A stretch of DNA of 64,000 bases from the NCBI GenBank assembly GCA_027943245.1, contig JANDJZ010001754.1, positions 62,001 through 126,000 on the forward strand, in the 5' to 3' direction. The DNA comes from Acanthamoeba sp. SK_2022b. Lineage: Eukaryota; Discosea; Longamoebia; Acanthamoebidae. Below are positions 7,821 to 58,413 of this stretch, one piece after another; position 1 is the stretch's first letter, and each line of letters opens with the position of its first letter. Both the position numbers and the translations under genes were made by a program. Below the pieces are notes generated by a model. That model was not told where the DNA came from. It was given only the letters and a program-made list of their open reading frames with translations, and did no database searches.

Positions 7821-8654
7821 ATGGTAACCAACAATAAAACTGCACTTGGGGAAGTCATTGCCAAAGCGATGACGATGAAAGGAATTCCAAAGCAAAAACA
7901 CATCAGCCATACGAGCCACGTACTGGACATCACAACAGCTGCAGCCCAGAAAAAGATGAGCGGTGCCTCAAACTGGGAGGTATCCCAGCTGGTTAAAGTC
8001 ATTGATTCAATCGATATGAGGATGAGTGACTTCTTTGATATTTATAATTATGCAATAAATGAAGTGCATGATGCTATATGGAATGATGGCAAGAACAACG
8101 TTAAATGCAAAATATACCTATCTAATGTAAACGCTATTGATACAACTGAATATTCTGCCTTAAAAATTAATGATGAGTGGGTTGTTTTTCATACTAACGA
8201 TATAAAAGATGATGTTTTTTTTGAATCAAAACGCAACATTGAAATGATTCAGTTATATCCTCAAAAACAAAATGAAGAAAAACACCGAATCGCTATTCTT
8301 GATGATGACAAAAACATCGTCGATAGCCTCAAAGAAATCATTGTAAACAATGAATATCTTGTTGATGCCTTTTATGATATTAACTCATTAGAGGAGAGCC
8401 TGAAAAATAAGCCATATGATGCGTATATTTTGGATTGGGTTATAGGAACAAAAACCGTGTTCAGCACGATTAAAGAGATAAGAAAAACTGAAAATAATAA
8501 TGCCATGGTACTGGTTCTTACCGGGCAACTGTCAGGGATCGTAGATAGCGAAATCGCAAGTGCTATAAATGATTATGATATAACAGGCCCTCACGAGAAA
8601 CCTATCAAAGCCAGTGTAATAAAATCATTAGTGGATAAACACTTTCCCAAGTGA
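7821..8654 (+). CDS. HTH (BetR-like) and receiver-domain response regulator
   Basis: 277 aa. The N-terminal part (about 1-75) resembles the BetR-type helix-turn-helix domain. A linker leads to a C-terminal receiver domain with the acidic cluster ILDDDKN (about residue 161), the phospho-acceptor Asp in YILDWVIG (about 204), the Thr in VLTGQ and the Lys in HEKPIK (about 259), so phosphotransfer looks possible. DNA binding sits at the N-terminus, the reverse of OmpR/NarL types. Ribosome site AAGGTG precedes ATG 7821. It heads a four-gene plus-strand cluster whose last gene is a hybrid kinase, its probable partner. Confidence 0.75.
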   Translation: MVTNNKTALGEVIAKAMTMKGIPKQKHISHTSHVLDITTAAAQKKMSGASNWEVSQLVKVIDSIDMRMSDFFDIYNYAINEVHDAIWNDGKNNVKCKIYLSNVNAIDTTEYSALKINDEWVVFHTNDIKDDVFFESKRNIEMIQLYPQKQNEEKHRIAILDDDKNIVDSLKEIIVNNEYLVDAFYDINSLEESLKNKPYDAYILDWVIGTKTVFSTIKEIRKTENNNAMVLVLTGQLSGIVDSEIASAINDYDITGPHEKPIKASVIKSLVDKHFPK

Positions 8655-8660
8655 ATCATT

Positions 8661-9647
8661 ATGAACGATAATTTACTGACTTATACAGGAAGTCTATTGC
8701 TTGATGGAAGATACATAGTGTCTCCATATGGAGTGGGTAAAGATATTCCATGTGGAGAAATCTCTCCCTTGAATGACTCTATTATTCATAATAATGCAAT
8801 CAGTAAAATATCAGTTGACTATTCCACCGTAAAAAGCCTTGCAATCATCAATGGGTTAGGGGTGACGCTGGGTGATTCAGTTGTTGGGATATCAGCACTG
8901 CACGCAATAAAAATATTCAATCCAAGTATCGGCATCAAAATCATTCGTCCTGAAAACTGCCCTGACTATGTTAATGAAGTATATACGTTGGCAAAGCATA
9001 TAATAGATGACATTTCCTATATGCCGTTTGACATTACCAGCGCTACCGATGCAGATCTAGTAATAGATATCGGGAACCAACTATACTGGAAAGATTTTAA
9101 CACACTGGAAATGCATGACTTCTTCTTAAGAAGTTTAGGCATAGAACACAAACATGTATCAGCCAGTTTAAAAATCAACTCATGGCTCAATGAAGCACCT
9201 ATCGAAGATTTAAATTTGGGTGAGTATGTTCTTTTCTGCCCATACGCTAGTACAAAAATAAGAAGCATACCCAAGAAATATCATAAAAAAATAATATCTT
9301 ACCTGAGTGATAAATTTAAGGTTAAGGTCTTAGGGTTCAGTGATATTAGCCATGACAATTACACGAACATTACCTCACTATCTACAAACACAACTTATTT
9401 TACATCCATCATTAAAAATGCAAAGCACCTTTACACGTGTGATTCAGCAGCCTTGCATATTGGCGCGGGGTTTAAAACCCCCACAACTTGTATATTCACA
9501 ACCGTGAAACCTGAACTTCGCAGCTTATACTACGATAACTGCACCTCTATTTATATTGGAAATAATAAAACAGAGGGCATACACAACAGTGAAAATATAT
9601 TTTTACTCGATTTAATCAGTAAGGAGTTTGAGGGCTATTATGCGTAA
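8661..9647 (+). CDS. GT9 / heptosyltransferase-like protein
   Basis: 328 aa, no signal peptide. The pattern GLGVTLGDSVVGISALHAIK near residue 60 and the C-terminal stretch HLYTCDSAALHIGAGFKTPTT match the two ends of the GT-B fold in glycosyltransferase family 9 (ADP-heptose transferase relatives), where the second segment contacts the nucleotide sugar. Similarity is by pattern only and the substrate is unknown. A sugar transferase between a response regulator and a sensor kinase is unusual; it may modify a sugar or protein sensed by the pathway, or be a divergent non-catalytic member. Confidence 0.55.
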   Translation: MNDNLLTYTGSLLLDGRYIVSPYGVGKDIPCGEISPLNDSIIHNNAISKISVDYSTVKSLAIINGLGVTLGDSVVGISALHAIKIFNPSIGIKIIRPENCPDYVNEVYTLAKHIIDDISYMPFDITSATDADLVIDIGNQLYWKDFNTLEMHDFFLRSLGIEHKHVSASLKINSWLNEAPIEDLNLGEYVLFCPYASTKIRSIPKKYHKKIISYLSDKFKVKVLGFSDISHDNYTNITSLSTNTTYFTSIIKNAKHLYTCDSAALHIGAGFKTPTTCIFTTVKPELRSLYYDNCTSIYIGNNKTEGIHNSENIFLLDLISKEFEGYYA

Positions 9648-10143
9648 ATTAATATCTCTAGCATTGTCTTTTTTAGTTATTCTATTTATTTCGGCCCCCT
9701 CTTTCGCAAATAAAGGAGATATCTACATTGATGGCGCAATAACTAACAAAAATTACGGAGATGGATACATCTTATCAGCAAAAGAGTTCAACACGCTGGA
9801 AAAAAGCCATATAAAGACGACAACTTCCTGGACTGTTCCGGGACGCGTTGTGGATTTTGAAGGCGTAAAATTCAAAGACTTGCTGAAACTTGTTGGTGCT
9901 CGTGGGAAAACGTTAAGAATGAGGGCATTAAATGATTACTGGGTCGATATCCCAGTCTCAGACATAGAACAATTCGATATTCTGCTGGCAAACAAAATGG
10001 ATGGTAGCCCTCTGAAAGTTAGAGACTTTGGGCCATACTTCGTCATTTACCCGATGGACAAATTTTACGATAAGCTTAATAGTCCTACTTTTCAAGCCCG
10101 CCATATTTGGCAGGTCAGCGGCATAACGGTATTAGAAAAATGA
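9640..10143 (+). CDS. Exported molybdopterin-dependent oxidoreductase-fold protein
   Basis: 167 aa from ATG 9640. A clear Sec signal peptide (RKLISLALSFLVILFISAPSFA) predicts periplasmic location. The mature part resembles the short sulfite-oxidase-like domain (VVDFEGVKFKDLLKLVGARGKTLRMRALNDYW, then PMDKFYD and RHIWQVSGITVLE). Short stand-alone members usually lack the cofactor-ligating Cys; I see no Cys in the mature protein, so it probably does not carry out molybdenum catalysis and may act as a sensor or ligand-binding module. It overlaps the preceding gene by 8 bases and the kinase gene by an ATGA junction. Confidence 0.6.
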   Translation: MRKLISLALSFLVILFISAPSFANKGDIYIDGAITNKNYGDGYILSAKEFNTLEKSHIKTTTSWTVPGRVVDFEGVKFKDLLKLVGARGKTLRMRALNDYWVDIPVSDIEQFDILLANKMDGSPLKVRDFGPYFVIYPMDKFYDKLNSPTFQARHIWQVSGITVLEK

Positions 10144-11852
10144 AACTGAAAAGGCTTATCATTCAATACTTATTAGTGTTCCTGGTGCTGACAGGTGGAT
10201 TTGTGTGGATGTATGAACAATACTTCTCCACTAGCCATAATATGAACTCAGCGGGACCTCAAGAGAACTACGCATGGGCAATCGCAAAATTCACGATCAG
10301 ACTAGCAGGATTTAATGCAAAAGTTGAGCGCCAACTTCGGTTAGGTAACAATGATAAAGAGGAATTACAAACAGAACTTGACCTCCTATTCTCAAGCTCA
10401 AATGTGCTGTTGCATAAAAGTGTTTCAACCAGATATTTATATGAAGAGGCTGGCTATGCCAATACGGTAGAGCAAATAAATGCCAACCTTGAAAATATCG
10501 ACACTGAACTAAACAAACCGACACCTGACTATTCGATCATACTTAAAAGCATTGAATTAATAGGTCAAGAAAATAAAGATCTAGTGGTAATATCTGACCA
10601 TGCAGAGGTCAGGCAAAGAAACATAATTCAGCAGGACTATATCGACAAAGCTAACTCAATGAAGTTCCCAATTGCTACACTGTACTTCCTATTTTTGTTG
10701 ATGCTTTTTATTTCATATCGACAAGTAAAGTCTATTAATAATCAATTAGAGTCCGAAAAGAAATCTTTTAACAACAAAAACGCATTCCTCGGGGTGTTGG
10801 GTCATGAATTAAGGACTTCACTTCAGGCAATAATTTCGTCGGTTGAGGTGATTATTCAGAAAAAAGATTCTATAGCATTCAACCACTTTGAGCGATTAGA
10901 GAATGCAGCCATGAAAATGGAACGTCAGATGAAAGACCTCGCTGAGTTCGCCAAAGTCGATAATGGTAATGTTGAAATAAAAAAATCATCATTCAACTTA
11001 CGAAAGATTGTTCATGACACTGTCGAGCAAAGCATTTCTATATTGAACAAGCAAAATGTTAGTGTAAGCATAGATAACATTCCAGATACATATATCAAAA
11101 GCGATCCATCAAGGGTCATGCAAATCATAGAGAATATTGTCACCAATGCAATAAAATATACAGACAATGGTCTCGTGCAGGTAAGCGCAAACATCCAAGA
11201 TAAATCAACTTTGGTTCTCAAAATCAAAGACACAGGTCAAGGCATTCCGAAGGACAAGGTTGATACAATATTCTATCCGTTCATCCGAGTTGGGAATGAT
11301 AATAAAGTTCCCGGTTTTGGAATGGGTTTGGCTATTGTTCATGGTGTTGTTAAAGCCATGAACGGAACAATTGATGTAAAAAGTGACATCGGTAAAGGAA
11401 GTACTTTTACAGTATCATTACCCATTGAATTTTCAACTCCTGAAGAGATTGGCATTACAACTGAGATCGCGAATGCGTTTTTCTCAGTACAAGACATCAG
11501 CATTTTAATTATCGATGACAATGAAATGGCATGCGAATCGCTGGTCTCTATACTTCAAAATGAGTTTACAGTAGAGTATACAACATCCCCTGAAAGAGCT
11601 TTGGAGAAATTATCTCGAAAATCTTTCGATCTTGTTTTGAGTGATCTACAAATGCCTATTATTACAGGTGATGAGCTATATAGAATGGTCAAAGAAAATA
11701 AAGGTCCAAATAAAAACACACCATTCATATTCATCAGTGCATACACCAACGAAAGCCCCATTAAAGATGTTGAATTTCTAACCAAGCCAGTGAGATTGAA
11801 TGACATTAAAAAAGCCATAAAGTCAGTGCTGGCAAAGGATTTAGACTCATAA
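10140..11852 (+). CDS. Membrane hybrid sensor histidine kinase
   Basis: 570 aa. An N-terminal membrane segment (about 5-23) and a second near residue 175-195 bracket a mostly helical periplasmic sensor of about 150 residues. Then come HisKA with the phospho-His in GVLGHELRTS (about residue 222), HATPase_c with the N box (IIENIVTNAIKY), the G1 box DTGQGIP and the G2 box GFGMGLAIV, and a C-terminal receiver with Asp in LVLSDLQMP (about 500) and Lys in FLTKPVR. The start at 10140 is fixed by the ATGA overlap with the exported protein. With the receiver protein at 7821 it can form a phosphorelay, possibly gated by the exported protein. Confidence 0.85.
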   Translation: MKLKRLIIQYLLVFLVLTGGFVWMYEQYFSTSHNMNSAGPQENYAWAIAKFTIRLAGFNAKVERQLRLGNNDKEELQTELDLLFSSSNVLLHKSVSTRYLYEEAGYANTVEQINANLENIDTELNKPTPDYSIILKSIELIGQENKDLVVISDHAEVRQRNIIQQDYIDKANSMKFPIATLYFLFLLMLFISYRQVKSINNQLESEKKSFNNKNAFLGVLGHELRTSLQAIISSVEVIIQKKDSIAFNHFERLENAAMKMERQMKDLAEFAKVDNGNVEIKKSSFNLRKIVHDTVEQSISILNKQNVSVSIDNIPDTYIKSDPSRVMQIIENIVTNAIKYTDNGLVQVSANIQDKSTLVLKIKDTGQGIPKDKVDTIFYPFIRVGNDNKVPGFGMGLAIVHGVVKAMNGTIDVKSDIGKGSTFTVSLPIEFSTPEEIGITTEIANAFFSVQDISILIIDDNEMACESLVSILQNEFTVEYTTSPERALEKLSRKSFDLVLSDLQMPIITGDELYRMVKENKGPNKNTPFIFISAYTNESPIKDVEFLTKPVRLNDIKKAIKSVLAKDLDS

Positions 11853-11860
11853 AATACAAC

Positions 11861-11909
11861 CCGTAATTTATACGGGATAAAGAATAAATCGCCCCACTCA
11901 GGGGCGATT
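11861..11909. terminator. Bidirectional terminator between convergent genes
   Basis: CCCGTA/TACGGG (11861-11877) and the stronger AATCGCCCC-ACTCA-GGGGCGATT (11887-11909) lie between the end of the kinase gene and the end of the minus-strand methylase gene. Confidence 0.65.
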
Positions 11910-11925
11910 ATAGTCAATTAATTGC

Positions 11926-12594
11926 TTACGAATTTTGTAAGCGAAGTGGCCATTTTTCCAACCAATGCATCGGGGTATACATCACCAATCGCCGTTCATC
12001 TGCTAGCGCGTTACCCAACACAACTTCTCTAGGAATGCCAAGCGAAGACAGCTGGATATACGCCATCGACATCGCTACTACATCGATATCAACGCACGAG
12101 ACCCACATATGCTTTGGTGGCGGATACCCCAAAGCCTGCATCTCGACTGCGGCCGCGATCATCATACCGCCGGCCCCACATGCCGGTTCGCTGATCGTCA
12201 CGAACGGCTGAGTCAGCAACAGTTGTTCCAACTCAGTGAACTGCAGCCTGGCCATCATGGACGCTACGCACCAAGGGGTAAAAAACTGCCCACGGTGTTT
12301 ATCACCGAGCTCTAACTTCATGAAGGACATTCCCAAAAAATCACAAGGTTCAGCGGCCAGTGCTATTCGGACCAGAGCAAGTAGATGCGCCAGGCGTTCG
12401 ACATCCTCACGTTCATACCCTTTGATGAGCGACATGTACTGCTTCTCCAGCGCGTCGTCCGGACAAAAGCGGTTGTGTATTGCTATCGCGCTGCACTGAA
12501 CAAAGTCAGAAAAGACCTTGTACCGGTGATGGTAGCGTGCCGTTTGGCCAAAGAGGCCGATGAATTGGTTTTGTACTTCAGTAAACGTCAGCAT
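11926..12594 (-). CDS. Short N-6 adenine methylase-like protein without catalytic motif IV
   Basis: 222 aa. It has the HsdM-type segments QFFTPWCVASMMARL (motif X region), EPACGAGGMMIAA (motif I, S-adenosylmethionine pocket) and CVDIDVVAM (motif II region). No (D/N)PP(Y/F) catalytic motif follows; the protein ends about 40 residues after motif II. Short methylase-like proteins of this kind occur on plasmids and ICEs. It may bind S-adenosylmethionine without methylating. ATG 12594 is chosen over an in-frame ATG at 12606 because GGAG sits 6 bases upstream, inside a three-part leader. It is the last gene of the 18.3-11.9 kb operon. Confidence 0.7.
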   Translation of the reverse strand: MLTFTEVQNQFIGLFGQTARYHHRYKVFSDFVQCSAIAIHNRFCPDDALEKQYMSLIKGYEREDVERLAHLLALVRIALAAEPCDFLGMSFMKLELGDKHRGQFFTPWCVASMMARLQFTELEQLLLTQPFVTISEPACGAGGMMIAAAVEMQALGYPPPKHMWVSCVDIDVVAMSMAYIQLSSLGIPREVVLGNALADERRLVMYTPMHWLEKWPLRLQNS

Positions 12595-12647
12595 GGTGAA
12601 CTCCATTAATAAATGGGAGTTCACCCGCAGTGGGAGAACTCCCCCAC
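12595..12647 (-). promoter_or_regulatory. Three-part RNA leader L1 (methylase)
   Basis: Minus-strand order: hairpin 1 (12630-12647) holding GGGAGTTCTCCC; hairpin 2 (12615-12626) GGGTGAACTCCC; ribosome site (12595-12606) ATGGAGTTCACC. Hairpin 2 is complementary to the ribosome site over 12 bases with one bulge, and its TGAACT loop is complementary to the AGTTC of hairpin 1. The structures are mutually exclusive. Confidence 0.65.
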
Positions 12648-12657
12648 GGGAAAAAAA

Positions 12658-12679
12658 GGCCACCGGGATACCGGTGGCC
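12658..12679 (-). terminator. Rho-independent terminator after the YubB-like gene
   Basis: Perfect stem GGCCACCGG / CCGGTGGCC with a 4-base loop followed on the minus strand by seven T (12651-12657). It lies about 30 bases after the stop of the 12710-13633 gene. Confidence 0.85.
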
Positions 12680-12709
12680 ATACGTTAGTGCTTCAACAAA
12701 AGACGGTGA

Positions 12710-13633
12710 TTAGCCGGCGGCTGCATTCGGTGACAACGGCACAGAATCCTTATCGGCGTAGGTCAGGTGGATCACCTCACCAGCCTCAACCTCAGCCGCT
12801 ATTCGTCCACCGTCGACATGCTCACCACGGTCGTAACGATCGTAGCCACTGCGTTCCGCATCAGGCATATACCAGGTATGTTCCACCTGGCAGCTGAACT
12901 GCTCCGACACTGTCCCGATAACCTCGCCGGCTGGCGGGTACCATGGGGAATCAAAGTGCACTGTCAACGTGTTAATGCCATCCCGTACACAGCCGACATT
13001 ATGGCCTGCCGGCCATTCGACGCCGTACTGTCGACCATAGAGCTCGACAGTGGTCGGCACATCACGCAGCAGTCCACCAGAGCCATTCAGTTCGGTCGCC
13101 AGACGCGTCGGGATCAGCATCAGCATATCGCACGGTGCAGTATATTCAGGCATCATCCCCAAACGTTCCCAGCAGATGCCGGCATCGATATCAGGGCTAA
13201 CCCCCACCAGACCGAACCAGTCCGCATACTGGCGAGAAAGCACATCCTCCATACGCGCCTTCGCCACGTTGGGGATGCTTTCCCATTTAACCGCATCGAT
13301 ACCCGACTGGCGGTAGAGTCGCTCTATCAGGCGAATGTTCTCGCCCGTTAACGGCACATCCGCCTTCAGCAACCCGAACCAGTGTTCAAAGGCCAGATTC
13401 TGAGGCGATGCAATCCCCGGCTGCGTTAACAGTGCCGGGTAAGGCACGTAAACACCGGGTTTTGTTGTCGCCGGCTTCAATATGCCGGCACACCCGGCCA
13501 GGAACAGCCGGCAGCTTTGTTGAACAGCATGACGGTAGTCAGGGACAACATGGCCATTGACCCATTGCTGCAGTTCATCAACAAAAACGGATTGGCCAGT
13601 GATCACTAAACGGTTATTGCACCAGTTCGACAT
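12710..13633 (-). CDS. YubB / DUF1281-like protein (Api92-like, ferredoxin-like fold)
   Basis: 307 aa. It starts MSNWCNNRLVITG, the typical opening of Api92/YubB-like proteins, and ends with the family's FDSPWYPP...Y block (about residues 215-260) followed by an acidic tail. Members are common on conjugative plasmids and ICEs; their function is not established, though they cluster with antirestriction and single-strand-DNA genes. ATG 13633 is set by GAGGAG. It belongs to the ardC operon, is preceded by leader L2 and followed by a strong terminator. Confidence 0.75.
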   Translation of the reverse strand: MSNWCNNRLVITGQSVFVDELQQWVNGHVVPDYRHAVQQSCRLFLAGCAGILKPATTKPGVYVPYPALLTQPGIASPQNLAFEHWFGLLKADVPLTGENIRLIERLYRQSGIDAVKWESIPNVAKARMEDVLSRQYADWFGLVGVSPDIDAGICWERLGMMPEYTAPCDMLMLIPTRLATELNGSGGLLRDVPTTVELYGRQYGVEWPAGHNVGCVRDGINTLTVHFDSPWYPPAGEVIGTVSEQFSCQVEHTWYMPDAERSGYDRYDRGEHVDGGRIAAEVEAGEVIHLTYADKDSVPLSPNAAAG

Positions 13634-13700
13634 GGTCGTTCTCCTCTTCTTACAAGAAAAAGAGGGAGCTTTCCCCAACGGGGGAAAGTCTCCCCCGTTG
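13634..13700 (-). promoter_or_regulatory. Three-part RNA leader L2 (YubB-like gene)
   Basis: Hairpin 1 (13676-13700) is CAACGGGGGA with TTCCCCCGTTG and loop GACT. Segment 2 (13656-13676) is GGGGAAAGCTCCC followed by TCTTTTTC. The ribosome site (13634-13649) contains GAAGAGGAG. Segment 2 is complementary both to the GGGAGACTTTCCCC of hairpin 1 and to the ribosome site. Confidence 0.65.
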
Positions 13701-13743
13701 GGTTAGGTGTTACCTCATGATGGCCAGGACGCTGATCCTGTCC

Positions 13744-13866
13744 TTAGTGGGCTTGCTCGCCATAGTGAGCCCGGTATACCTGATGTTCGTCGCCATTAGC
13801 GACCAATCCCAGCTGTACCTCAGGGTCAACGGTTATCTGCAGCCCCTTGTTGGTGGCTTTAGTCAC
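13744..13866 (-). CDS. Small hypothetical protein (40 aa), GTG start
   Basis: A GTG codon at 13866 lies behind AGGAG with suitable spacing and opens a 40-residue frame (VTKATNKGLQITVDPEVQLG..., ending GEQAH). It overlaps the end of the 13859-14137 gene by 8 bases, so the two are probably coupled. No signal peptide or membrane segment is visible. The evidence is ribosome site and overlap only; I do not recognise the family. Confidence 0.45.
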   Translation of the reverse strand: MTKATNKGLQITVDPEVQLGLVANGDEHQVYRAHYGEQAH

Positions 13867-14137
13867 CGGTTATCTCCTGTTCTGTTTCACCGATCACGCC
13901 CAGCTCTTCCACCTGGCGCAGATACGGTGATGATGAGGTAAAGGGATTGGCGCCAAGGCGAACCAGGTGGTATTTATCCACCAGGTTGTTGATCGCCTCA
14001 AACGGCCGCACCCCCGCTTCCTGTAAAGCCTTCACGCACTCCGCTTCACACAGATCGGTATCGTTTAACGCCAGGCCAAAATATTTGGCCAGTAACCTGC
14101 CGGCAATGGTCTGCCAGTAACGTTGTTCAATCGTCAT
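13859..14137 (-). CDS. Hypothetical protein in the ardC operon
   Basis: 92 aa, unrecognised; it reads like a small soluble helical protein (MTIEQRYWQTIAGRLLAKYF...). ATG 14137 is preferred because GAGGAG lies 7 bases upstream. An alternative ATG at 14152 makes an ATGA overlap with the ardC stop. Either way it is coupled to ardC. Unlike its neighbours it has no three-part leader. Confidence 0.65.
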   Translation of the reverse strand: MTIEQRYWQTIAGRLLAKYFGLALNDTDLCEAECVKALQEAGVRPFEAINNLVDKYHLVRLGANPFTSSSPYLRQVEELGVIGETEQEITGD

Positions 14138-14148
14138 CACCAGACTCC

Positions 14149-15159
14149 TCATGCCGCAACGGCTGGATCGGTTGTCACCGGGTCCGCCAGGGGCTTCAGC
14201 AAAAATTCTGACGCCTCACGGGCCTGTTTGGCCGCACGAAACAGCGCGCGCTTGTCCTCTCGCAATACCTTGAGCCAATGCTCGAGGTAGCTGTCGTGCT
14301 GGACGTCGCCAAAGACGCCGAGCTGCGCGCACATAAAAGCACTGCCCAGCTCCGCCACCAGTTCCTCAAACGCGTACACCGGGTCGCCGAACCTCCGGGA
14401 AGAAGACGTGATCCCTTCCCGGTTAAGCCGTTTAGCATGGCCGGTGCTGTGCACCAGTTCATGCAACAACGTTGACCAGTAATCCGCCTCAGTCCGAAAT
14501 TGCTGAGCCTGTGGCAGGACAATCTGGTCCCGGAGCGGGGAGTAAAACGCCCTGTCCTGGTAGGCCTGTTCAACCCGAACACCGCAGGCCTCAACGAGGG
14601 TGTTAACCTGAGCCTGCGTTTTCGCATCAACCGACGCATCACCCTCATCCGTCTCGGTTGCCGGCATAACGCCGACAACGATCTCGGGGAGGTTGTCGCA
14701 TTGGGCAACGTTAAACAGATACAGCGGCTTCAGCACGGGTATTCGCGTTTTCAGCGGTTTTCCCTCTTCGTCAAACAGCTGCCGGCCATCAGCATCCTCC
14801 ACCTGCTTATCCCAGGGTTTGAATACCACAGCCAGGGTTGCCGTCTCGCCGGCACGTACATGGCCACCGACGGCCTCCGCCTGTTTATAAGTCAGCCAGC
14901 GATTGGAGTGAAAACCGCGCTCTTCCGCGGCTATCCACAACAGCAGCACATTCACACCGCTGTAGTGGTAACCCGTCGTGCCGTTCTGCGGCATGACAGA
15001 CCCGGTATAAACCCGGTTCCGGTCAGTCCGCCAGGGCTTGCGCCAGGGTAAGGTGCCACGCTCAATGGCGCCGATGATACTGTCCGTGACCTGTTGGTAC
15101 AGGTCTGGTCGTTCGCGACGGGCTTTTGCCGGCCGGCGTGATGGTGATGTTTTCTTCAT
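14149..15159 (-). CDS. ardC: ArdC-type antirestriction protein (ssDNA-binding and zincin-like domains)
   Basis: 336 aa. The N-terminal ssDNA-binding ArdC domain (DLYQQVTDSIIGAIERGTLPWRKPW, about residues 20-150, with YSGVNVLLLW) is followed by a zincin-like metallopeptidase domain with HELVHSTGH (about residue 238) and a downstream Glu in FEELVAELG. ArdC proteins bind incoming single-stranded DNA and protect it from restriction in the recipient. ATG 15159 has GAGGAG upstream. It is preceded by leader L3 and shares an operon with DUF3085 and YubB-like genes, a typical leading-region set. Confidence 0.85.
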   Translation of the reverse strand: MKKTSPSRRPAKARRERPDLYQQVTDSIIGAIERGTLPWRKPWRTDRNRVYTGSVMPQNGTTGYHYSGVNVLLLWIAAEERGFHSNRWLTYKQAEAVGGHVRAGETATLAVVFKPWDKQVEDADGRQLFDEEGKPLKTRIPVLKPLYLFNVAQCDNLPEIVVGVMPATETDEGDASVDAKTQAQVNTLVEACGVRVEQAYQDRAFYSPLRDQIVLPQAQQFRTEADYWSTLLHELVHSTGHAKRLNREGITSSSRRFGDPVYAFEELVAELGSAFMCAQLGVFGDVQHDSYLEHWLKVLREDKRALFRAAKQAREASEFLLKPLADPVTTDPAVAA

Positions 15160-15221
15160 GGAATGCTCCTCAATGAAAAAGGCGCATTCCTCCCCTGGCG
15201 GCGAAGAATACGCCCCAGGGG
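15160..15221 (-). promoter_or_regulatory. Three-part RNA leader L3 (ardC)
   Basis: Hairpin 1 (15192-15221) has stem CCCCTGG/CCAGGGG with GGCG/CGCC inside and GTATTC in the loop. Segment 2 (15175-15190) is GGAATGCGCCTTTTTC. The ribosome site (15160-15171) is GAGGAGCATTCC. Segment 2 pairs with GGCGTATTC of hairpin 1 and with the ribosome site. The TTTTTC after segment 2 would make the first pairing terminator-like. Confidence 0.65.
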
Positions 15222-15234
15222 ACAGGAAAAGTGG

Positions 15235-15837
15235 TTAGAGCGCGGGGTAACGCAGTGCCCCTTTCGGATTCACTGTGTCAACACGCTGTTTCAGCCGTTC
15301 GAACAGAGCCAGGTAATCAGCCCGATCGGCGGGTTTTGCCCGTTTGCAATCGGTATGACAGGCCGTGGCCAGCAGGTTGATGGCCCGCTCACGCCAGTGT
15401 TTAAACTCATCCTGGCTGACGCAGACCGAGTAATGGACCTCGGCCAGCTGCAGCATGCGCGCGGTCACCCGGCGATAATCGGCGACACACACCCAGTTAA
15501 CCGTGGCAACGTGCATATAGACCGTTTCGGGTAACAGGTGGATCCAGAGCTCATGGCCTTGCGACAGTATTCGTTCGATACAACTGTCGTTCAGCACCAG
15601 CTCCTCGCCAAAGTCGTCGCCGCCGGCAAGCTGCCGGGACGTTTCATACCAGGCCTCATCCTTGTCAGGATGACACCCGTCGGCATACGCCAGGTGTTTG
15701 ATACGGCCGGTGGCGTTTCGTTCGCCCACGGCCGGCATCAGATAGACGCCATTATCCTTGGCCAACACCAGCGCACACTGATTGGCGCGCACTTCAGCCA
15801 CCACGGCGCGCAGTTCTGCAGGGTTAAAATGCAACAT
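15235..15837 (-). CDS. DUF3085-like protein
   Basis: 200 aa. The N-terminal half (MLHFNPAELRAVVAEVRANQ..., then NGVYLMPAVGE and HLAYADGC) fits the DUF3085 family found on plasmids and ICEs; the C-terminal third (about 135-200) is helical and basic. Function unknown. ATG 15837 lies behind AGGAG and leader L4. It sits directly upstream of ardC in the same operon, suggesting a role around DNA entry (inference). Confidence 0.65.
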   Translation of the reverse strand: MLHFNPAELRAVVAEVRANQCALVLAKDNGVYLMPAVGERNATGRIKHLAYADGCHPDKDEAWYETSRQLAGGDDFGEELVLNDSCIERILSQGHELWIHLLPETVYMHVATVNWVCVADYRRVTARMLQLAEVHYSVCVSQDEFKHWRERAINLLATACHTDCKRAKPADRADYLALFERLKQRVDTVNPKGALRYPAL

Positions 15838-15890
15838 GATAAGTCTCCTGAGTTGCGGAGACGGACTTCCCCGGGAGGGAAAGCCCCTCC
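15838..15890 (-). promoter_or_regulatory. Three-part RNA leader L4 (DUF3085 gene)
   Basis: Hairpin 1 (15874-15890) is GGAGGG-GCTTT-CCCTCC. Segment 2 (15857-15874) is CCGGGGAAGTCCGTCTCC. The ribosome site (15838-15849) is AGGAGACTTATC. Segment 2 can pair with GGGGCTTTCCC of hairpin 1 (with G-U) or with GGAGACTT of the ribosome site (with a bulge). From memory, a candidate RNA motif named after DUF3085 has been described; I cannot say whether this is it. Confidence 0.6.
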
Positions 15891-15923
15891 AGGGAAATGA
15901 AACGTTATGGTCAGTGGGTGGTG

Positions 15924-16409
15924 TTACCACGAAGCCCGGAAGTAAAGGTGGTCCAGACTGAAATCAAAACCGGCAAGAACGCTGTTAACGTACTCCCTCA
16001 GTAAATCGACCTGCGTCCAGTAAATACCGCCGTAGTCACGCGATTCAGAAGGAAACTCTTCATGGCAGTTCGCTTCATTCAGCCGCGACAGACACAAATC
16101 CAGCATCTGGACGTCGTTGCGGTCAAACGCCATCAGTTCACCGCTTGTGACCTCCCCGACACTGTTGTCCACCCAATGCATCAACGCAGTAAACCCGCGA
16201 AAATGACAGGTGTGAACCAGCAGCGGCGGATGGTAGTGGTTACACGTTTTGTGGTTGTATATTCGCGGCGCCTGCACACAATCACCGCCGTCCTCCAGCC
16301 ACGCTGGTGAACACGGCACCCAGTCACCGACGGGTGTCCAGTCGCCGTTTACCGGCAACATCGGATAGTCAGCCTTACGCTGACGGAAAAAGTTGATATC
16401 AAGCCCCAT
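15924..16409 (-). CDS. Hypothetical protein in the ardC operon
   Basis: 161 aa, not recognised. It begins MGLDINFFRQRK and is rich in Cys, His and Trp (CNHYHPPLLVHTCHF about residues 57-71), which might bind metal or be structural. No signal peptide. ATG 16409 has GAGAGGAG upstream within leader L5. Proteins opening MGLDxxF are frequent in accessory regions of mobile elements, but I cannot name a function. Confidence 0.7.
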   Translation of the reverse strand: MGLDINFFRQRKADYPMLPVNGDWTPVGDWVPCSPAWLEDGGDCVQAPRIYNHKTCNHYHPPLLVHTCHFRGFTALMHWVDNSVGEVTSGELMAFDRNDVQMLDLCLSRLNEANCHEEFPSESRDYGGIYWTQVDLLREYVNSVLAGFDFSLDHLYFRASW

Positions 16410-16461
16410 GGGTCACTCCTCTCGGTATACGGACAGGAGCTCCCCTGCAGGGAAGCCCTGC
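16410..16461 (-). promoter_or_regulatory. Three-part RNA leader L5
   Basis: Hairpin 1 (16447-16461) is GCAGGG-CTT-CCCTGC. Hairpin 2 (16431-16447) is CAGGGGAGCTCCTG. The ribosome site (16410-16423) is GAGAGGAGTGACCC. Hairpin 2 is complementary to AGGAG of the ribosome site and, with G-U pairs, to the GCTTCC of hairpin 1. Confidence 0.55.
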
Positions 16462-16483
16462 CGGGTGAATCAAAAAATCGCGA

Positions 16484-17062
16484 CTATGCCGCCGAATGCG
16501 CCTGATTCAGACGCACGGCCAGCACTTCATCCATGCCGACAATAACGCGCCAGCGACAAAGCAATTCATCGGGATCATCGTTATGACTGCTATACCCTTC
16601 CAAATGGTAAAGAATGGAGTCATCAGCCAGTGCCGCCTCATCCACTTCACCCGGAGCAAGAAGTTCCGGGCGTTTAAGGTGGTGGCGCAACCAGAGTAGT
16701 GGCAACTCCCATCCTGGATTTTTGGAAAGTCTGGAGTCGTTCCGCTCTATCCGTACAGAGCCAGGGCACAGGTTATGAATCAGTATCAGAACCAGTCGGT
16801 GAAAAAAATCAGGGCGCTGAAAGAACCCCACACGTTCTTCGACGTAAGGCATCGGTTGCATCGGGATATTTACCTCTGCTACCGGTGATACACGTAAACC
16901 GGCCGTTTCGAAGATCATGCCATCAAACAGCTGACCGGCTTCCGTGATACCTTCTGGCCGGGCCTCTTCAGGCAACAACCAGAACACCTCGGTCACCGCC
17001 AGGGTGAAATCAATCCATGCGTCCTGGGACGGTGATGCGACAAAATAAACGTTCATACTCAC
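16484..17062 (-). CDS. Hypothetical protein in the ardC operon, probable GTG start
   Basis: 192 aa, not recognised; an acidic soluble protein (MNVYFVASPSQDAWIDFTLAV...). The GTG at 17062 is 7 bases from GGAGG, the spacing seen for the neighbouring genes, whereas ATG 17056 is 13 bases away, so the GTG start is preferred. It carries leader L6, almost identical in its pairing words to L7 of the next upstream gene, suggesting the two are co-regulated. Confidence 0.65.
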   Translation of the reverse strand: MSMNVYFVASPSQDAWIDFTLAVTEVFWLLPEEARPEGITEAGQLFDGMIFETAGLRVSPVAEVNIPMQPMPYVEERVGFFQRPDFFHRLVLILIHNLCPGSVRIERNDSRLSKNPGWELPLLWLRHHLKRPELLAPGEVDEAALADDSILYHLEGYSSHNDDPDELLCRWRVIVGMDEVLAVRLNQAHSAA

Positions 17063-17125
17063 GATAAATCCTCCGGTAACAAAAAATTGGGGGGATTTAT
17101 CCCCCGGACGGGAATAAATCCCCGT
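17063..17125 (-). promoter_or_regulatory. Three-part RNA leader L6
   Basis: Hairpin 1 (17108-17125) is ACGGGGATTTATTCCCGT. Hairpin 2 (17089-17105) is GGGGGATAAATCCCCCC followed by AATTTTTTG. The ribosome site (17063-17074) is GGAGGATTTATC. The ATAAAT loop of hairpin 2 is complementary to the GATTTATT loop of hairpin 1 and to the ribosome site. Confidence 0.7.
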
Positions 17126-17157
17126 CAGGGTGTGTGTCTGTCAGGCTGCCGTGCCGA

Positions 17158-17532
17158 TCACCAAACCTCGAACTCGCCAATCGCAATGTCGGCTTCGACA
17201 TCGCGCTTGCCTTGCTCCACGGCCTGCGCCCAATAAGACGCGTGAATATCTTTGCTCAGTGTATCCAGACGAGCCATAAGCGCTTGCCCGTTAGCGGAAA
17301 GTGTCGATATATAGCCGTACTGCATGACCAGCAGGAAACTCCCAAAGGCCTCACCCGCATTGATAACGGCATTTTCCACATCATTCAGCTCAGTGGGGTC
17401 TTCACGTTCAAGACCCAGTCCCAGACGCTGGCAAGCCCGGATACTCATGAGCTTGCCTTCCACCAGGCAAAGGAAATGAAACGCATCAAGCGCGGTTTTC
17501 ACGTCAAGTACGTTGGGTAACGGGGTATGCAT
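17158..17532 (-). CDS. Hypothetical protein in the ardC operon
   Basis: 124 aa, not recognised; largely helical and acidic (MHTPLPNVLDVKTALDAFHFLCLVEGKLMSIRACQRLG...). ATG 17532 lies 8 bases after GGAGG; the in-frame ATG at 17547 lies within the ribosome site and is not credible. No signal peptide or membrane segment is visible. Confidence 0.7.
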   Translation of the reverse strand: MHTPLPNVLDVKTALDAFHFLCLVEGKLMSIRACQRLGLGLEREDPTELNDVENAVINAGEAFGSFLLVMQYGYISTLSANGQALMARLDTLSKDIHASYWAQAVEQGKRDVEADIAIGEFEVW

Positions 17533-17591
17533 CGATAAATCCTCCATAAAATGCCGAGGGATTTATCCCCATAACGGGTGTAAATCCCCGT
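17533..17591 (-). promoter_or_regulatory. Three-part RNA leader L7
   Basis: Hairpin 1 (17574-17591) is ACGGGGATTTACACCCGT. Hairpin 2 (17556-17570) is GGGGATAAATCCCTC, then CGGCATTTTATG. The ribosome site (17533-17545) is GGAGGATTTATCG. Pairing logic as in L6 and with nearly the same words, while stems and linkers differ. Confidence 0.7.
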
Positions 17592-17620
17592 CAGGGTATT
17601 AAGTGGGTAAACCGACCGCT

Positions 17621-17959
17621 CTAAAAGCGGTAACGCAGTCTGGCCAAATGCTCAGCATGTTGGCTGGCGAGTCGGTAAGCTTTTCTGCGCTCGGTATGCT
17701 TGCAAGACAGCACAACGTGGGTGCTTGCGTAGGTATATTCGCCTTTGTACCAACCTTTGCGCAGCGTCAGTAACGCGCTGACCGAACCATCATCACTGCA
17801 GATAACATGCGCGCGAACGGCAAAATTACCTGCTGCATTGACGTACCAGTCAGTAAAACGCGGCGGCGCCATGCGAAAAGGTATTCGCTGGAAAGCCGAT
17901 TTGACACGGTGCAGGGTTGAGAAGAAATCAGGAACAACTGAAGAAGTAAAAGCAGACAT
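17621..17959 (-). CDS. Hypothetical basic protein, first gene of the ardC operon
   Basis: 112 aa, basic, not recognised (MSAFTSSVVPDFFSTLHRVKSAFQRIPFRMAPPRFTDWYV...). ATG 17959 is set by AGGAG and leader L8. It is the first coding gene after the promoter at 18299-18327 and structured RNA copy A, so expression of the operon begins here. The basic character would suit nucleic acid binding (inference). Confidence 0.7.
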   Translation of the reverse strand: MSAFTSSVVPDFFSTLHRVKSAFQRIPFRMAPPRFTDWYVNAAGNFAVRAHVICSDDGSVSALLTLRKGWYKGEYTYASTHVVLSCKHTERRKAYRLASQHAEHLARLRYRF

Positions 17960-18018
17960 GGTGTTTCTCCTGTAAAAAAGGGAAACACCGCTCCCAGGGG
18001 AAAGGTATTTCCCTTGGG
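17960..18018 (-). promoter_or_regulatory. Three-part RNA leader L8
   Basis: Hairpin 1 (17995-18018) contains GGGAAA-TACC-TTTCCC. Segment 2 (17980-17995) is GGGAGCGGTGTTTCCC followed by TTTTTTAC. The ribosome site (17960-17971) is AGGAGAAACACC. Segment 2 pairs along 16 bases with hairpin 1 (G-U tolerated) or along 12 with the ribosome site. The T run makes the former terminator-like. Confidence 0.7.
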
Positions 18019-18085
18019 ATTTGATTGCGTCACGCGCAATCATCATTGGTAAGAAAGTTAAGCCTTGTTCATCAAAACTAAGATG

Positions 18086-18283
18086 ACATCTACTCTCAAA
18101 GGCGGGCAGATGTACTACACCGTAAACGGCGTGCTTCCTTTCAAGCTACGGAAGCGTTTTTTGCCACTACCCGAAGGCGATCCTCACAAGTGACAGGATC
18201 ATTGGTGGCTGTCGACTGACAGCTAGGTCACCCGAAGGCGCTCATCACAGACCCACTGAGCATTGGTGGTTGTCCGAAGACAA
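18086..18283 (-). ncRNA. Structured RNA element, copy A (5' leader of the ardC operon)
   Basis: About 198 nt, homologous to 20147-20346 and 58414-58552. Minus-strand order: UUGUC-UUCG-GACAA hairpin (18270-18283); a module CCACCAAUG-[CUCA..UGAG]-CGCCUUCGGGUG; hairpin GCUGUC/GACAGC; a second module with stem GAUCCU/AGGAUC; stem GCUUCC/GGAAGC; ACGCCG/CGGUGU; and a terminal stem ACAUCU/AGAUGU (ending near 18086). Several stems keep pairing across copies through compensatory or G-U changes, mostly on the minus strand. It lies between promoter 18299-18327 and leader L8. Confidence 0.8.
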
Positions 18284-18298
18284 CGAGTAAGCTTGTTT

Positions 18299-18327
18299 AT
18301 TTTCCGAGCAAATCACTGTTCTGTCAA
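18299..18327 (-). promoter_or_regulatory. Promoter of the ardC operon
   Basis: On the minus strand TTGACA (18327-18322), a 17-base spacer and GAAAAT (18304-18299). Transcription would start about 18290, just before the first hairpin of RNA copy A. The arrangement recurs at 58569-58596. Confidence 0.7.
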
Positions 18328-18406
18328 GAGGCCATGCGCACCTGTTTTTGGAATAATATTTCCTATTATCCTAATAACCTAACGTCTCAGTACCATTATG
18401 ATTTTA

Positions 18407-19418: not shown

Positions 19419-20146
19419 CTTAATACCTCCAATGGGATACACGTCCTTCTGCTTTTAAAGAAGCAGACGGATCTGTACCTCAGTAATTTCAACCCCGACG
19501 ACACGGTTGCTTTTGCGCTTCCTGCGTCTCGACTGGTATCTGTGCATCGGGGCGGCGAAATGTTGAGTTCTTGCGAGGCACCCCAGATCTCTGATCTGTT
19601 TGCTGCTTATGCAGAGCTGACTTTCGTCAAGCTGCCTCCAACACTACTGTTCGTAGTGTCGCCATCGATACCGAGTCGATTTCCTCCTTTTTAGATAGTG
19701 AAACGTTCAAAACGGATTTCCCGTCGTAATTACGTTGAAGTGAATGAGTGTTTAAGACCGTACTGACACGGACTACATGTTGGTCAGATGGTAGTAAAAC
19801 GTTGAAAGCCACGTCGTGCGTGGTTTGAGACGTTATGCGCTACGCGCGTCACTTGGTAGTGTCTTCGCCACTTCACAAGTGACGCGCGCTCCTCTGCTCC
19901 TAATGAGACTCACGTAAGCGGCCAAATGTACCAAATGGCCTTATACGTGCGTTCAAAAGTCGCATCGTCAGCAACACGTCATAAAAGCCTTAACAGCTTT
20001 AAAGAAGTAAGTGATATCAGTCTGTTGCGACTGAATTTTTCAGGCAAGGACTGCCATATGTAGATGTGTGCCAGGCTAAAAGCGCCATGGCATTGTGATG
20101 ACTTTTCAGCAGCCTTAACCGCCCCGAATACTACGTTATACAGGCG
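19419..20146. other. Gene-free structured stretch with large hairpins
   Basis: No convincing gene. The main features are a 13-bp inverted repeat CGCGCGTCACTTG / CAAGTGACGCGCG (19843-19855 and 19876-19888) whose 20-base loop has its own AGTG/CACT stem, and next to it an ACGTAAGcGGCCA / TGGCCTTAtACGT stem (about 19911-19954). A CTGCTT/AAGCAG hairpin at about 19449-19470 precedes the integrase ribosome site. A 61-codon minus frame (19627-19812, GTG start) lacks a ribosome site and is not called. Candidate cis-acting locus such as oriT. Confidence 0.45.
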
Positions 20147-20346
20147 ATATCTGCTCCCAAAGGCGGGCAGATGTACCACACCATATATGGCGTGCTCCCT
20201 CTCAGGCTACGGAAGCTTTCTTTTGCCATCACCCGAAGGCGATCCTCGCAGATGGCCAGATCATTGGTGGCTGCCTATCGACAGCAGGGTCACCCGAAGG
20301 CGCTCATCACAGACCCACTGAGCATTGGTGGTCGTCCGAGGACGAC
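20147..20346 (-). ncRNA. Structured RNA element, copy B
   Basis: About 200 nt with both modules, matching copy A over its whole length with many substitutions. Its first hairpin on the minus strand is GUCGUC-CUCG-GACGAC (20331-20346), where U-A pairs of copies A and C become C-G. Other stems keep pairing only on the minus strand through G-U: GCUUCC/GGGAGC, GCUGUC/GGCAGC and GAUCU/GGAUC. The upstream promoter is weaker than for copies A and C (TTGACG about 20 bases before, no good -10). Downstream lie the hairpin cluster and the integrase gene. Confidence 0.75.
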
Positions 20347-20558
20347 AGTACAACGTCGCAATCCTAACAAACCACGTCAAACAAAGGAATAGACATTTTT
20401 CAGTTATTTGATAACTTTTCTCTCAGAAAGTAAGAACCGTTAAAGTGATCGATATTTCTTATCTAAAAGAGGTTGTGTTTTTAGGTTTGGCATAGCGTCA
20501 GTATTACTAGTCAGAACCTCCCAATAAGAACATTTCGATAAAACATGCTGAGGGGCTA

Positions 20559-37486: not shown

Positions 37487-38023
37487 TCAAAAATAATCCA
37501 GCTTAAAACGCACTGTGGAAAAATACGCTCCCGCCTTCAACGGCTGGTGATTCGGCATCAACGTCATGGAATAATTCAGCACTCTATTTCCCAGTATTAT
37601 TCCTTCCATCGGTAAGGGTTTCCCTGGAATAATCGGCGTGCCGCTGCTGTCTTTTATCTTCAATGCGACGCCGCGCGCCTCGCCCTGTACGCCAAACAGA
37701 GCGCCTTCCGCATAACCATCAAACGTGACCTGAAAGAATTTCCAATCAGGTTTGTTTTCCGGCCGTTCCAAAATGCAGTTGACCAATTCAATACTGAAAG
37801 GTTTGGTCATCCCCTGGCCGTCACGAATGATCTGCCCGAGAGGAAGAGTGTCCATATCGATCGTCTGATCGCGGCTGCCGGCAGCAATGGCGCAGGCGGT
37901 GTCGATAATGGCGCCGTGCACGCTGACTTTGCCCCACCCCTGTACGGCGTTAGTTGCACTGCTATTCGCAAACGCCAACGACGCCAAAAGAACGGCACCC
38001 GCTCGATTCCTTGGTAAAAACAT
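37487..38023 (-). CDS. Minor fimbrial subunit, PapH/MrpB-like anchor or terminator
   Basis: 178 aa. Signal peptide ending NSSATNA; pilin domain with Cys in IIDTACAIAAG and ELVNCILERP, ending VRFKLDYF. Its position between the major subunit and usher genes matches PapH/MrpB, which stop growth of the rod and anchor it. Rod terminators lack a free acceptor groove; this cannot be judged by eye. It is separated from the major subunit gene by an attenuator-like hairpin. Confidence 0.8.
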   Translation of the reverse strand: MFLPRNRAGAVLLASLAFANSSATNAVQGWGKVSVHGAIIDTACAIAAGSRDQTIDMDTLPLGQIIRDGQGMTKPFSIELVNCILERPENKPDWKFFQVTFDGYAEGALFGVQGEARGVALKIKDSSGTPIIPGKPLPMEGIILGNRVLNYSMTLMPNHQPLKAGAYFSTVRFKLDYF

Positions 38024-38049
38024 CGCGACATTCCTTTGACAGGGAGATT

Positions 38050-38081
38050 AACCAGGCATGCGGCGAACCCCATGCCTGGTT
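38050..38081 (-). terminator. Attenuator hairpin after the major subunit gene
   Basis: AACCAGGCATG (38050-38060) and CATGCCTGGTT (38071-38081) form an 11-bp stem about 20 bases after the major subunit stop codon. Such hairpins commonly raise the ratio of major to minor subunit mRNA. Confidence 0.7.
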
Positions 38082-38101
38082 GATTAAGCCTTCGGACTTA
38101 C

Positions 38102-38623: not shown

Positions 38624-38941
38624 AAAATCTATATTCCTTAATAGAAAATTGTGCTTACTAACTAAATGAAAGGTTTTAACTAACTAAAAATCAGTCACTT
38701 GTAATAACTTCAGTTTGGTTTTGAACACAACACCTGGCCACAATACAGCTAGTTAATTCTAAGGTAAATTTACTTATGCAAAATAGCTAATAGATAAACA
38801 CACATAGTTAAGCCAGTGTTTTCGCTCTGCGTAGATATCTTGTCAAACCAATCTTAATAAGAAAAGTTTTTTTTACAAAAAAGCAAAAAATCAATATTTA
38901 TTCCCTAGCCAGAGTTAAATAGCGACATTAATTAGCGATAT

Positions 38942-39495: not shown

Positions 39496-39602
39496 AAAAG
39501 ATGCATTTGGTGAATAAAATTCGCTAAGTTATCCCTAATGAGTAGTTTGCAACACCTCATTGCAGCACAAGCCGAAAAAAATTTATCTATTGAGACATAA
39601 TC

Positions 39603-58248: not shown

Positions 58249-58321
58249 GATGTTTTCTCCAGGAGTAAAGATTCGGTGACGGAGAAATACACCTTCCCTG
58301 ACGGGAAAAGTATTTCCCGTC
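58249..58321 (-). promoter_or_regulatory. Three-part RNA leader L9 (DUF3577 gene)
   Basis: Hairpin 1 (58300-58321) is GACGGGAAA-TACT-TTTCCCGTC, perfect. Segment 2 (58281-58298) is GGGAAGGTGTATTTCTCC. The ribosome site (58249-58263) is CCTGGAGAAAACATC. Segment 2 pairs with AAATACTTTTCCC of hairpin 1 or with GGAGAAA of the ribosome site. The pairing words are close to those of L8, 40 kb away. Confidence 0.65.
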
Positions 58322-58413
58322 GGGAGCCAGGTATGGGTATACGCCATATCCTGACAGTCTGATCAGATTGAATAAGCCTTAATCGTTACGCAAAGTCGCG
58401 CTCACTATCAACG

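What the first reader, a model, noticed from the sequence alone, without database searches (positions are those of the whole stretch)
12595..18018. Nine three-part leaders with mutually exclusive pairing
Leaders before genes at 12594, 13633, 15159, 15837, 16409, 17062, 17532, 17959 and 58248 share an architecture: a GC-rich hairpin 1, a segment or hairpin 2, and the ribosome site. In each, segment 2 is complementary both to the hairpin-1 loop and to the RBS, so hairpin 1 imitates the RBS. The words differ between leaders (GATTTA/ATAAAT, AGTTC/GAACT, AAATAC/GTGTTT and others) but match within each, which simple homology does not explain. Several have a T run after segment 2, so pairing 1:2 may terminate transcription while 2:3 would hide the RBS. 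I know of no described system like this spread gene by gene through an operon.
Basis: seen in the sequence. Interest (0 to 1): 0.87.

Follow-up and report, generated by a model that had tools for sequence, protein, structure and literature searches.

The report
Three-strand RNA switches before ICE genes
In a family of mobile DNA elements, nearly every gene of one operon starts with its own tiny RNA in which one strand can pair either with an upstream hairpin or with the ribosome landing site, a conserved arrangement for which no earlier description was found and which probably gates genes that help the element settle in a new cell.

Summary
In detail: clear for 7 of 9 leaders, marginal for 13633, weak for 15837. 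In truncated folds T is the most stable fold before C exists in 13 of 16 leaders. Of 23 annotated operon genes in three plasmids 18 passed, against 0 of 17 other genes. ArdC leaders show two-sided changes in both helices. A:B mismatches in relatives are mostly G.U (73 to 8 A.C), fitting mRNA-sense RNA; B:C shows no such bias. These operons are usually headed by a STAXI RNA. No Rfam family matches. Best reading: a cis-acting translation gate with an attenuator-like competing hairpin. Function, trigger and antitermination are inferred, not shown.

The parts
17992..18019 (-). g1 leader: HP1 (strand A inside)
   Evidence: folds
17979..17989 (-). g1 strand B, followed by TTTTTT
17960..17971 (-). 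g1 strand C (RBS)
17568..17596 (-). g2 HP1/A
17555..17567 (-). g2 strand B
17533..17545 (-). g2 strand C (RBS)
17102..17130 (-). g3 HP1/A; the T hairpin 17091-17123 is a 14-pair terminator-like site
17090..17101 (-). g3 strand B
17063..17074 (-). g3 strand C (RBS)
16447..16461 (-). g4 HP1/A
16430..16445 (-). g4 strand B (no U-run)
16410..16425 (-). g4 strand C (RBS)
15869..15894 (-). g5 HP1/A (weak case)
15857..15862 (-). g5 strand B, 6 bp with the RBS
15843..15848 (-). g5 strand C (SD)
15191..15222 (-). g6 (ArdC) HP1/A
15179..15190 (-). g6 strand B, then T-run
15160..15171 (-). g6 strand C (RBS)
13674..13702 (-). g7 (DUF1281) HP1/A
13656..13672 (-). g7 strand B with U-rich tail (marginal case)
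13641..13650 (-). g7 strand C (SD region)
12626..12650 (-). g8 (N6-MTase-like) HP1/A
12612..12625 (-). g8 strand B
12595..12607 (-). g8 strand C (RBS)
58296..58325 (-). g9 (DUF3577) HP1/A
58280..58293 (-). g9 strand B (no U-run)
58249..58262 (-). g9 strand C (RBS)
18109..18285 (-). STAXI RNA (RF01728) at the head of the g1-g8 operon
   Evidence: 105.5 bits
58394..58554 (-). STAXI RNA upstream of g9
   Evidence: 75.7 bits
12658..12679 (-). ordinary intrinsic terminator directly 5' of the g8 leader

Best explanation
Each leader is a cis-acting three-strand RNA switch that gates translation of its own gene. As RNA polymerase moves, HP1 folds first (strand A inside it). When B emerges it can invade HP1 through the loop and form the longer hairpin T (A:B); T leaves the RBS open but, where a U-run follows, also looks like an intrinsic terminator or pause. 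If C emerges while B is free, or at equilibrium, HP1 plus B:C form and hide the RBS. So the gene is locked at rest and is translatable mainly from RNA caught in the T state. Nearly every gene of the operon that is not overlapped or abutted by its neighbour carries its own copy with its own words, so no upstream gene, promoter or read-through transcript opens it. Shown: the complementarities, their conservation with two-sided change, the folding order in silico in most leaders, the mRNA-sense wobble bias of A:B in the relatives, the link to STAXI-headed operons. Inferred: that B:C represses, that T opens or terminates, and what tips the balance in the cell (polymerase speed or pausing, a bound factor, or a STAXI-modified polymerase).
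For: Within-leader against between-leader pairing: 0 of 20,000 permutations reach the observed value over 16 leaders and over 35 non-redundant ones; both sets were partly picked for having the pattern. Annotated operon genes of L030, L031, L032: 18 of 23 at joint p<0.05 (A:B alone 17, B:C alone 11) against 0 of 17 other genes of the same records (A:B alone 1, B:C alone 0). ArdC orthologues (7): A:B 97.8% of cells paired, 3 of 13 pairs changed on both sides (shuffles reach this in 10 of 500); B:C 91.4%, 4 of 10 pairs (4 of 500); slid controls at most 76.9% and 50.0%. G.U against A.C under neutral scoring in A:B: 73 to 8 in 35 relative leaders, against 3228 to 1438 for mismatched leader pairs. 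Where A and C differ by a transition 3' of the SD, B is the base that can pair with both in 49 of 59 triplets from 50 leaders. Switch score 6 or more, at the best of five context lengths, in 30 of 35 relatives and 7 of 9 window leaders, against 43 of 410 shuffles. The fold that uses B beats HP1 alone by a mean 7.8 kcal/mol in the 41 of 50 leaders that passed that score. One promoter-like site in 11800-18400, 5' of STAXI (3.9 expected), so one transcript is likely.
Against: No expression, probing or mutant data exist here. B:C has no G.U bias (31 to 39); in the SD part B can pair with both A and C in only 14 of 38 transition triplets and usually follows A, and at transversions beyond the SD B pairs with A in 33 and with C in 13 of 47, so B:C may be less tightly selected than A:B. 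Of the 49 favourable triplets 39 are of one kind and come from related leaders. In the window's nine leaders alone the A:B wobble ratio (15 to 8) is hardly above that between leaders (171 to 113). 15837 and 13633 fail or are marginal. The switch depends on the length folded: at a fixed 78 nt 23 of 35 relatives and 5 of 9 window leaders reach 6. In the 78-nt full-length MFE 16409 and the L004 g8 leader keep T instead of HP1 plus B:C, and before C is made 15837, 15159 and the L004 g7 leader keep HP1 instead of T. Folding order rests on truncated thermodynamic folds, not on kinetics. The ArdC structure was drawn from one of the sequences, left out one mismatched column, and shuffles alone give 95.1% and 87.5% paired cells because most pairs do not vary.
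Confidence: 0.6

Rival explanations
1. Plain transcription attenuators: T is the working intrinsic terminator, HP1 the anti-terminator, and the RBS hairpin a by-product; they set a falling gradient of transcription along the operon.
For: T is GC-rich and often followed by a U-run; 16 terminator-like sites in 11800-18400 against 7.0 in shuffles, the g3 T hairpin listed second; T is the MFE before C exists in 13 of 16 leaders. A:B is the better kept helix.
Against: No U-run in 16409, 15837, 58248 and others, yet two of these three keep strong A:B and B:C; in 18 of 23 annotated operon genes the two pairings occur jointly.
Confidence: 0.15
2. Target of a trans-acting regulator (an ICE-encoded or host RNA-binding protein, or a small RNA) that reads the HP1 shape or its GGGA strand and so sets which pairing forms.
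For: The HP1 shape is shared while words differ; no known aptamer family matches.
Against: No RNA-binding regulator was recognised among the 30 window proteins scanned with Pfam, but not all window proteins were scanned; the words differ so much that a base-pairing sRNA would need a partner per gene.
Confidence: 0.12
3. DNA-level hairpins in the transferred single strand (priming sites, ssDNA promoters, SSB displacement).
For: The operon looks like a leading/establishment region, and ssDNA promoters are known there (PMC11541004, passages).
Against: A:B mismatches in relatives are G.U in the mRNA sense, 73 to 8 A.C; the helices are anchored on RBSs; no promoter-like hexamers in the eight leaders of 11800-18400.
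Confidence: 0.05
4. Mutational, not selective: hairpin-templated (quasipalindrome) correction during replication keeps A, B and C matched without any function.
For: A, B and C are imperfect direct and inverted repeats a few dozen bases apart, the classical setting for such events (recalled).
Against: Templating should give perfect copies, not a bias to G.U over A.C; joint pairing at RBSs was absent before 17 other genes of the same records.
Confidence: 0.06

Closest known systems
Type I toxin mRNAs with metastable anti-SD hairpins (aapA3 of H. pylori; hok) and the MS2 maturation leader (PMC6733600, passages)
   Same: Co-transcriptional succession of alternative hairpins in which anti-SD strands hide or free the SD.
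   Different: Single genes, with a toxin and an antisense RNA in the toxin cases; here eight genes of one operon (two of them weak) each have their own upstream A-B-C set.
Transcription attenuators and riboswitches with strand exchange (yxjA purine riboswitch, PMC9756952, search listing only)
   Same: A first hairpin is invaded by a later strand to give a terminator-like hairpin.
   Different: No known aptamer or Rfam match; the third strand is the RBS; the U-run is optional; repeated gene by gene.
Tn916 canT (PMC11658703, passages) and the antitermination of pLS20-type conjugation operons (PMC8955417, abstract)
   Same: Conjugative-element operons with internal terminators and an antitermination element that lets polymerase pass them; [quoted passage not shown]
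   Different: In what I read the terminators are not joined to RBS control; STAXI has no shown antitermination activity.
EGeRS1 of pLS20-family plasmids (PMC8708921, abstract and sections 3.3 and 4.1)
   Same: Structured regions before establishment operons including ardC, mechanism unknown.
   Different: 400-600 bp, conserved, before operons; here about 75 nt, own words, gene by gene.
STAXI RNA RF01728 (PMC2864571, passages)
   Same: Sits at the head of these operons.
   Different: STAXI is mainly a repeated pseudoknot; no leader matches it or another Rfam family at gathering score.

Membership tests
RBS-sequestering leader (anti-SD hairpin) | RBS region paired with an upstream strand in the stable fold | tested here: met
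   6 or more of the 14 bases before the start paired upstream in 9 of 9 window and 41 of 41 relative leaders at the context length with the best switch score; 312 of 410 shuffles also do, so this alone is not specific
RBS-sequestering leader (anti-SD hairpin) | repression of translation in vivo | not testable with these tools
   no experiment
Intrinsic-terminator attenuator | GC-rich hairpin followed by a U-run, competing with another hairpin | tested here: inconclusive
   competing hairpin present in most; T-run of 4 or more in 5 of 9 window leaders and 26 of 35 relatives, against 359 of 820 shuffles
Riboswitch of a known class | match to a known aptamer family | tested here: not met
   no Rfam match in the leaders at gathering score; at E up to 1 in 11900-18100 two sub-threshold hits (isrD, tfoR) near the g8 leader
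Type I toxin-antitoxin mRNA | leader of a small toxin peptide with an antisense RNA | tested here: not met
   proteins of 112-336 aa: ArdC, DUF1281, DUF3085, N6-MTase-like, DUF3577 and four without a Pfam match; an antisense RNA was not looked for
Processive antitermination operon (canT/conAn/put type) | element at the operon head that makes polymerase resist later terminators | not testable with these tools
   STAXI at the head and terminator-like hairpins inside are present; activity unknown
EGeRS1 | 400-600 bp conserved region before each establishment operon | tested here: not met
   leaders about 75 nt with different words, gene by gene

The most novel reading that the evidence does not exclude
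A self-checking double lock spread gene by gene: hairpin T is needed to open the RBS but kills an ordinary polymerase, and a polymerase that slips past because T did not fold makes mRNA whose RBS is hidden by B:C. Only polymerases made termination-proof at STAXI would pass every T and yield translated mRNA, so establishment genes are read out only from their own start and only in fresh transcripts, for instance just after DNA entry.
Probability: 0.15. Interest if true: 0.92.

Novelty: new variant of a known kind. Interest (0 to 1): 0.72.

Why it matters
It would be an RNA control layer for establishment-type genes (anti-restriction, DNA methylase-like) built from independent three-strand switches, one per gene. 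It gives a natural series for studying co-transcriptional strand exchange, a concrete partner for the unexplained STAXI RNA, and a possible answer to how such genes stay silent in a settled element.

Tried and rejected
Rfam matches for the leaders: none at gathering score. E. coli complete genomes by megablast: no match. Viral contigs: no relative. The best-B search under-scores 15837 and 13633 because B:C and A:B use partly different stretches; the scores stand as they came out. A MAFFT alignment of 16 leaders was not in structural register, so no covariance model was built. Family-wide pair counts on MAFFT alignments hold many broken A:B cells for the N6-MTase (424 of 1485), DUF1281 (332 of 938) and DUF3577 (143 of 391) sets, which I put down to columns out of register; only the cleaner ArdC set (50 of 608) was taken further. 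That STAXI equals the F-plasmid Frpo is not supported: no STAXI match at gathering score in the 19.5-kb F stretch; that stretch was not scanned for leaders. IncL (pOXA-48-type) plasmid L002: 18 starts scored, highest 4, so the architecture was not found there. STAXI is not strictly required: L045 and L048 have such leaders but no STAXI at E up to 1 in 19-kb stretches. The switch score alone is not specific: of 48 hits of 8 or more in L034-L048 I count 21 with the leader by eye, the other 27 look like chance hits, and the scan also hit inside apparent coding DNA (L055, L060, L067, L068, L074).

Rows dropped and sets picked: of 16 g8 homologues whose DNA before the aligned start was printed 7 show the leader, 1 is weak (L016) and 8 do not (true starts not located); those 9 are in no relative set, and L016 only. 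The 41 relative leaders, called unselected in that script, hold six taken from scan hits (L054, L056, L057, L058, L062, L071; L062 is not a DUF3577 gene although my script labels it so); one search repeats the counts without these six (35 leaders). Near-identical Serratia copies were left out. The 23 genes are every annotated gene from STAXI to the methylase gene, listed after I had seen their folds; the 17 controls are most, not all, other plus-strand genes of those stretches. STAXI places (28, of which 25 over the cut-off): 10 have an integrase homologue downstream and none shows the leader; 9 have a DUF3577 homologue downstream, 6 pass the scan and 3 show it by eye only (L059, L068, L074); of the 9 others 8 pass and L053 had no candidate start. 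Several starts per place were tried without correction.
Full report
What is there. The window is part of a Serratia integrative and conjugative element (about 94% identical in blocks of 11, 6.5 and 4.9 kb to plasmid pE36_1 of S. marcescens), inside a 44.9-Mb assembly. Eight genes with leaders run on the minus strand from 17959 to 11926: four without a Pfam match, then DUF3085, ArdC, DUF1281 and an N6-methylase-like protein in an order in which DUF3085 is fifth, with a CbtA-like gene overlapping the end of ArdC. A ninth leader stands before DUF3577 at 58248, near SSB and topoisomerase genes. Six of the seven gaps between the leader genes are 74-115 nt; the seventh, 515 nt before DUF1281, holds CbtA. 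A STAXI RNA stands upstream of both sets.

The anatomy. Each leader folds into a GC hairpin HP1 and a second hairpin that takes in the RBS region. B, the 5' strand of that second hairpin, is also complementary to A, the 5' arm and loop of HP1. The A:B helix runs on through the top of HP1 and gives a longer hairpin T, in most leaders with a loop of 4-5 nt and sometimes a bulge or internal loop; in g3 it is an unbroken 14-pair, terminator-like site. In 78-nt folds T is the MFE before C is made in 13 of 16 leaders (7 of 9 in the window; not 15837, 15159 and the L004 g7 leader), and with C present the MFE pairs B with C in most, while 16409 and the L004 g8 leader keep T. In the 41 of 50 leaders that passed the switch score, the fold that uses B beats HP1 alone by a mean 7.8 kcal/mol. 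Opening the RBS costs a mean 5.7 (window) and 6.0 kcal/mol (41 relatives), against 3.9 in shuffles.

Is it chance or plain homology? Within-leader pairing beats between-leader pairing in all 20,000 permutations, but these sets were partly picked for having the pattern. Seven of nine window leaders clearly exceed shuffles; 13633 is marginal and 15837 is not distinguishable; of 46 other window genes none reached 9, against 7 of 9 leaders. The fairest test took every annotated gene from STAXI to the methylase gene in Pantoea pROTS050421_D, Erwinia pEB102 and Salmonella pSGI4: 18 of 23 passed at joint p<0.05 (Fisher 4e-21; A:B alone 17, B:C alone 11), against 0 of 17 other genes of the same stretches (A:B alone 1). 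Four of the five misses start inside, or within 15 bases of, the previous gene; the fifth, L032_6390, has p=0.053.

Conservation with changed words. In ArdC leaders A/B/C read GGCGTATTC / GAATGCGCC / AGCATTCC in the window and GGCGTGCCTC / GAGGGGCACGCC / AGTGCTCC in Salmonella SGI4. On seven ArdC leaders A:B is 97.8% paired with three pairs changed on both sides, B:C 91.4% with four; shuffles reach the covariation scores in 4 and 6 of 500, which is no probability for related sequences, and the count of further pair types for B:C is not unusual (197 of 500). The g8 leaders of L004, L014, L015 and L022 use other words than the window but keep both pairings. By eye, leaders of this kind also stand in L043, L045 and L048, from genomes of 5.0, 2.6 and 1.9 Mb of the same order.

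RNA or DNA? With G.U and A.C scored alike, A:B mismatches in 35 relative leaders are 73 G.U to 8 A.C, against 3228 to 1438 between leaders; B:C shows 31 to 39, no bias. With six scan-derived leaders added the counts are 89 to 11 and 38 to 40; the nine window leaders alone show 15 to 8 against 171 to 113 between leaders, hardly a difference. In 50 leaders, where A and C differ by a transition beyond the SD, B can pair with both in 49 of 59 triplets (39 of one kind); in the SD part in only 14 of 38, where B usually follows A; at transversions beyond the SD B pairs with A in 33 and with C in 13 of 47. I read this as mRNA-sense RNA pairing of A with B, with B:C the less strictly kept helix.

Link to STAXI. 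STAXI was found in 6 of 295 genomes drawn from the order and, in 274 drawn from the class, only in the starting genome. Of 28 STAXI places 10 stand before an integrase homologue and none shows the leader; 9 stand before a DUF3577 homologue and 6 pass by scan, 3 more by eye; of 9 others 8 pass and 1 had no candidate start. L045 and L048 have leaders without a detectable STAXI. Only one promoter-like site lies in 11800-18400, just 5' of STAXI, where 3.9 are expected, and an ordinary terminator stands directly before the g8 leader, so g8 probably needs read-through.

How it most likely works. I hold the translation gate as the common core, because the RBS pairing is predicted throughout while the U-run is not universal. 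T opens the RBS and, where a U-run follows, is also terminator- or pause-like. What sets the balance is unknown. The boldest reading, a double lock that only a STAXI-modified polymerase opens, rests on the place of STAXI, the terminator-like hairpins inside the operon and the precedents of Tn916 canT and pLS20-type operons (PMC11658703 passages; PMC8955417 abstract); nothing here tests it. That this is the leading region, read first on entry, is inferred from gene content and from direction towards the relaxase gene; oriT was not located.

Literature. Nine searches of the held open-access library listed no paper that by title or abstract describes such leaders; most listed papers were not opened, and subscription papers and preprints are not in the library. 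Nearest in mechanism are the metastable anti-SD hairpins of type I toxin mRNAs and the MS2 maturation leader (PMC6733600, passages).

Noticed in passing
L002 (IncL plasmid NZ_CP086427.1) 10081, 11616, 15874, 16129, 17177, 18141, 18463, 18934, 19440, 20366: A different, nearly constant leader is repeated before many genes of a pOXA-48-type plasmid: GCGCCCCGACTGGCGCAGGAG, 10 copies within 3 mismatches, mean 0.00 in shuffles, often after a TCGAAAGGC...CTTTCG hairpin.
   Followed up: partly
window 12658-12679 (-): A strong ordinary terminator sits directly before the g8 leader with no room for a promoter; also seen in L001, L005 and (altered) L009.
   Followed up: partly
window 20170-20347, 18109-18285, 58394-58554 (-) and 19530-19679 (-): Three STAXI and one EFASI RNA; 10 of 28 STAXI places in other genomes stand before an integrase homologue, without three-part leaders downstream.
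   Followed up: partly
G000: The window lies in a 44.9-Mb assembly of 1129 contigs, far too big for one bacterium: perhaps a contaminant or symbiont contig in a eukaryote assembly.
   Followed up: no
window 37487-41081: Fimbrial genes (Fimbrial domains, a FimH-like adhesin) are carried as cargo in the element.
   Followed up: no
window 7821-11852 (+): A BetR/response-regulator gene and neighbours on the opposite strand (a hybrid sensor kinase in the pE36_1 annotation) sit between the leader operon and the helicase/TraI genes; in the Pantoea and Erwinia plasmids the operon runs straight into UvrD and TraI.
   Followed up: no
window 13859-14152 (-): A CbtA-like toxin gene overlaps the end of ArdC and has no leader of its own.
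   Followed up: no
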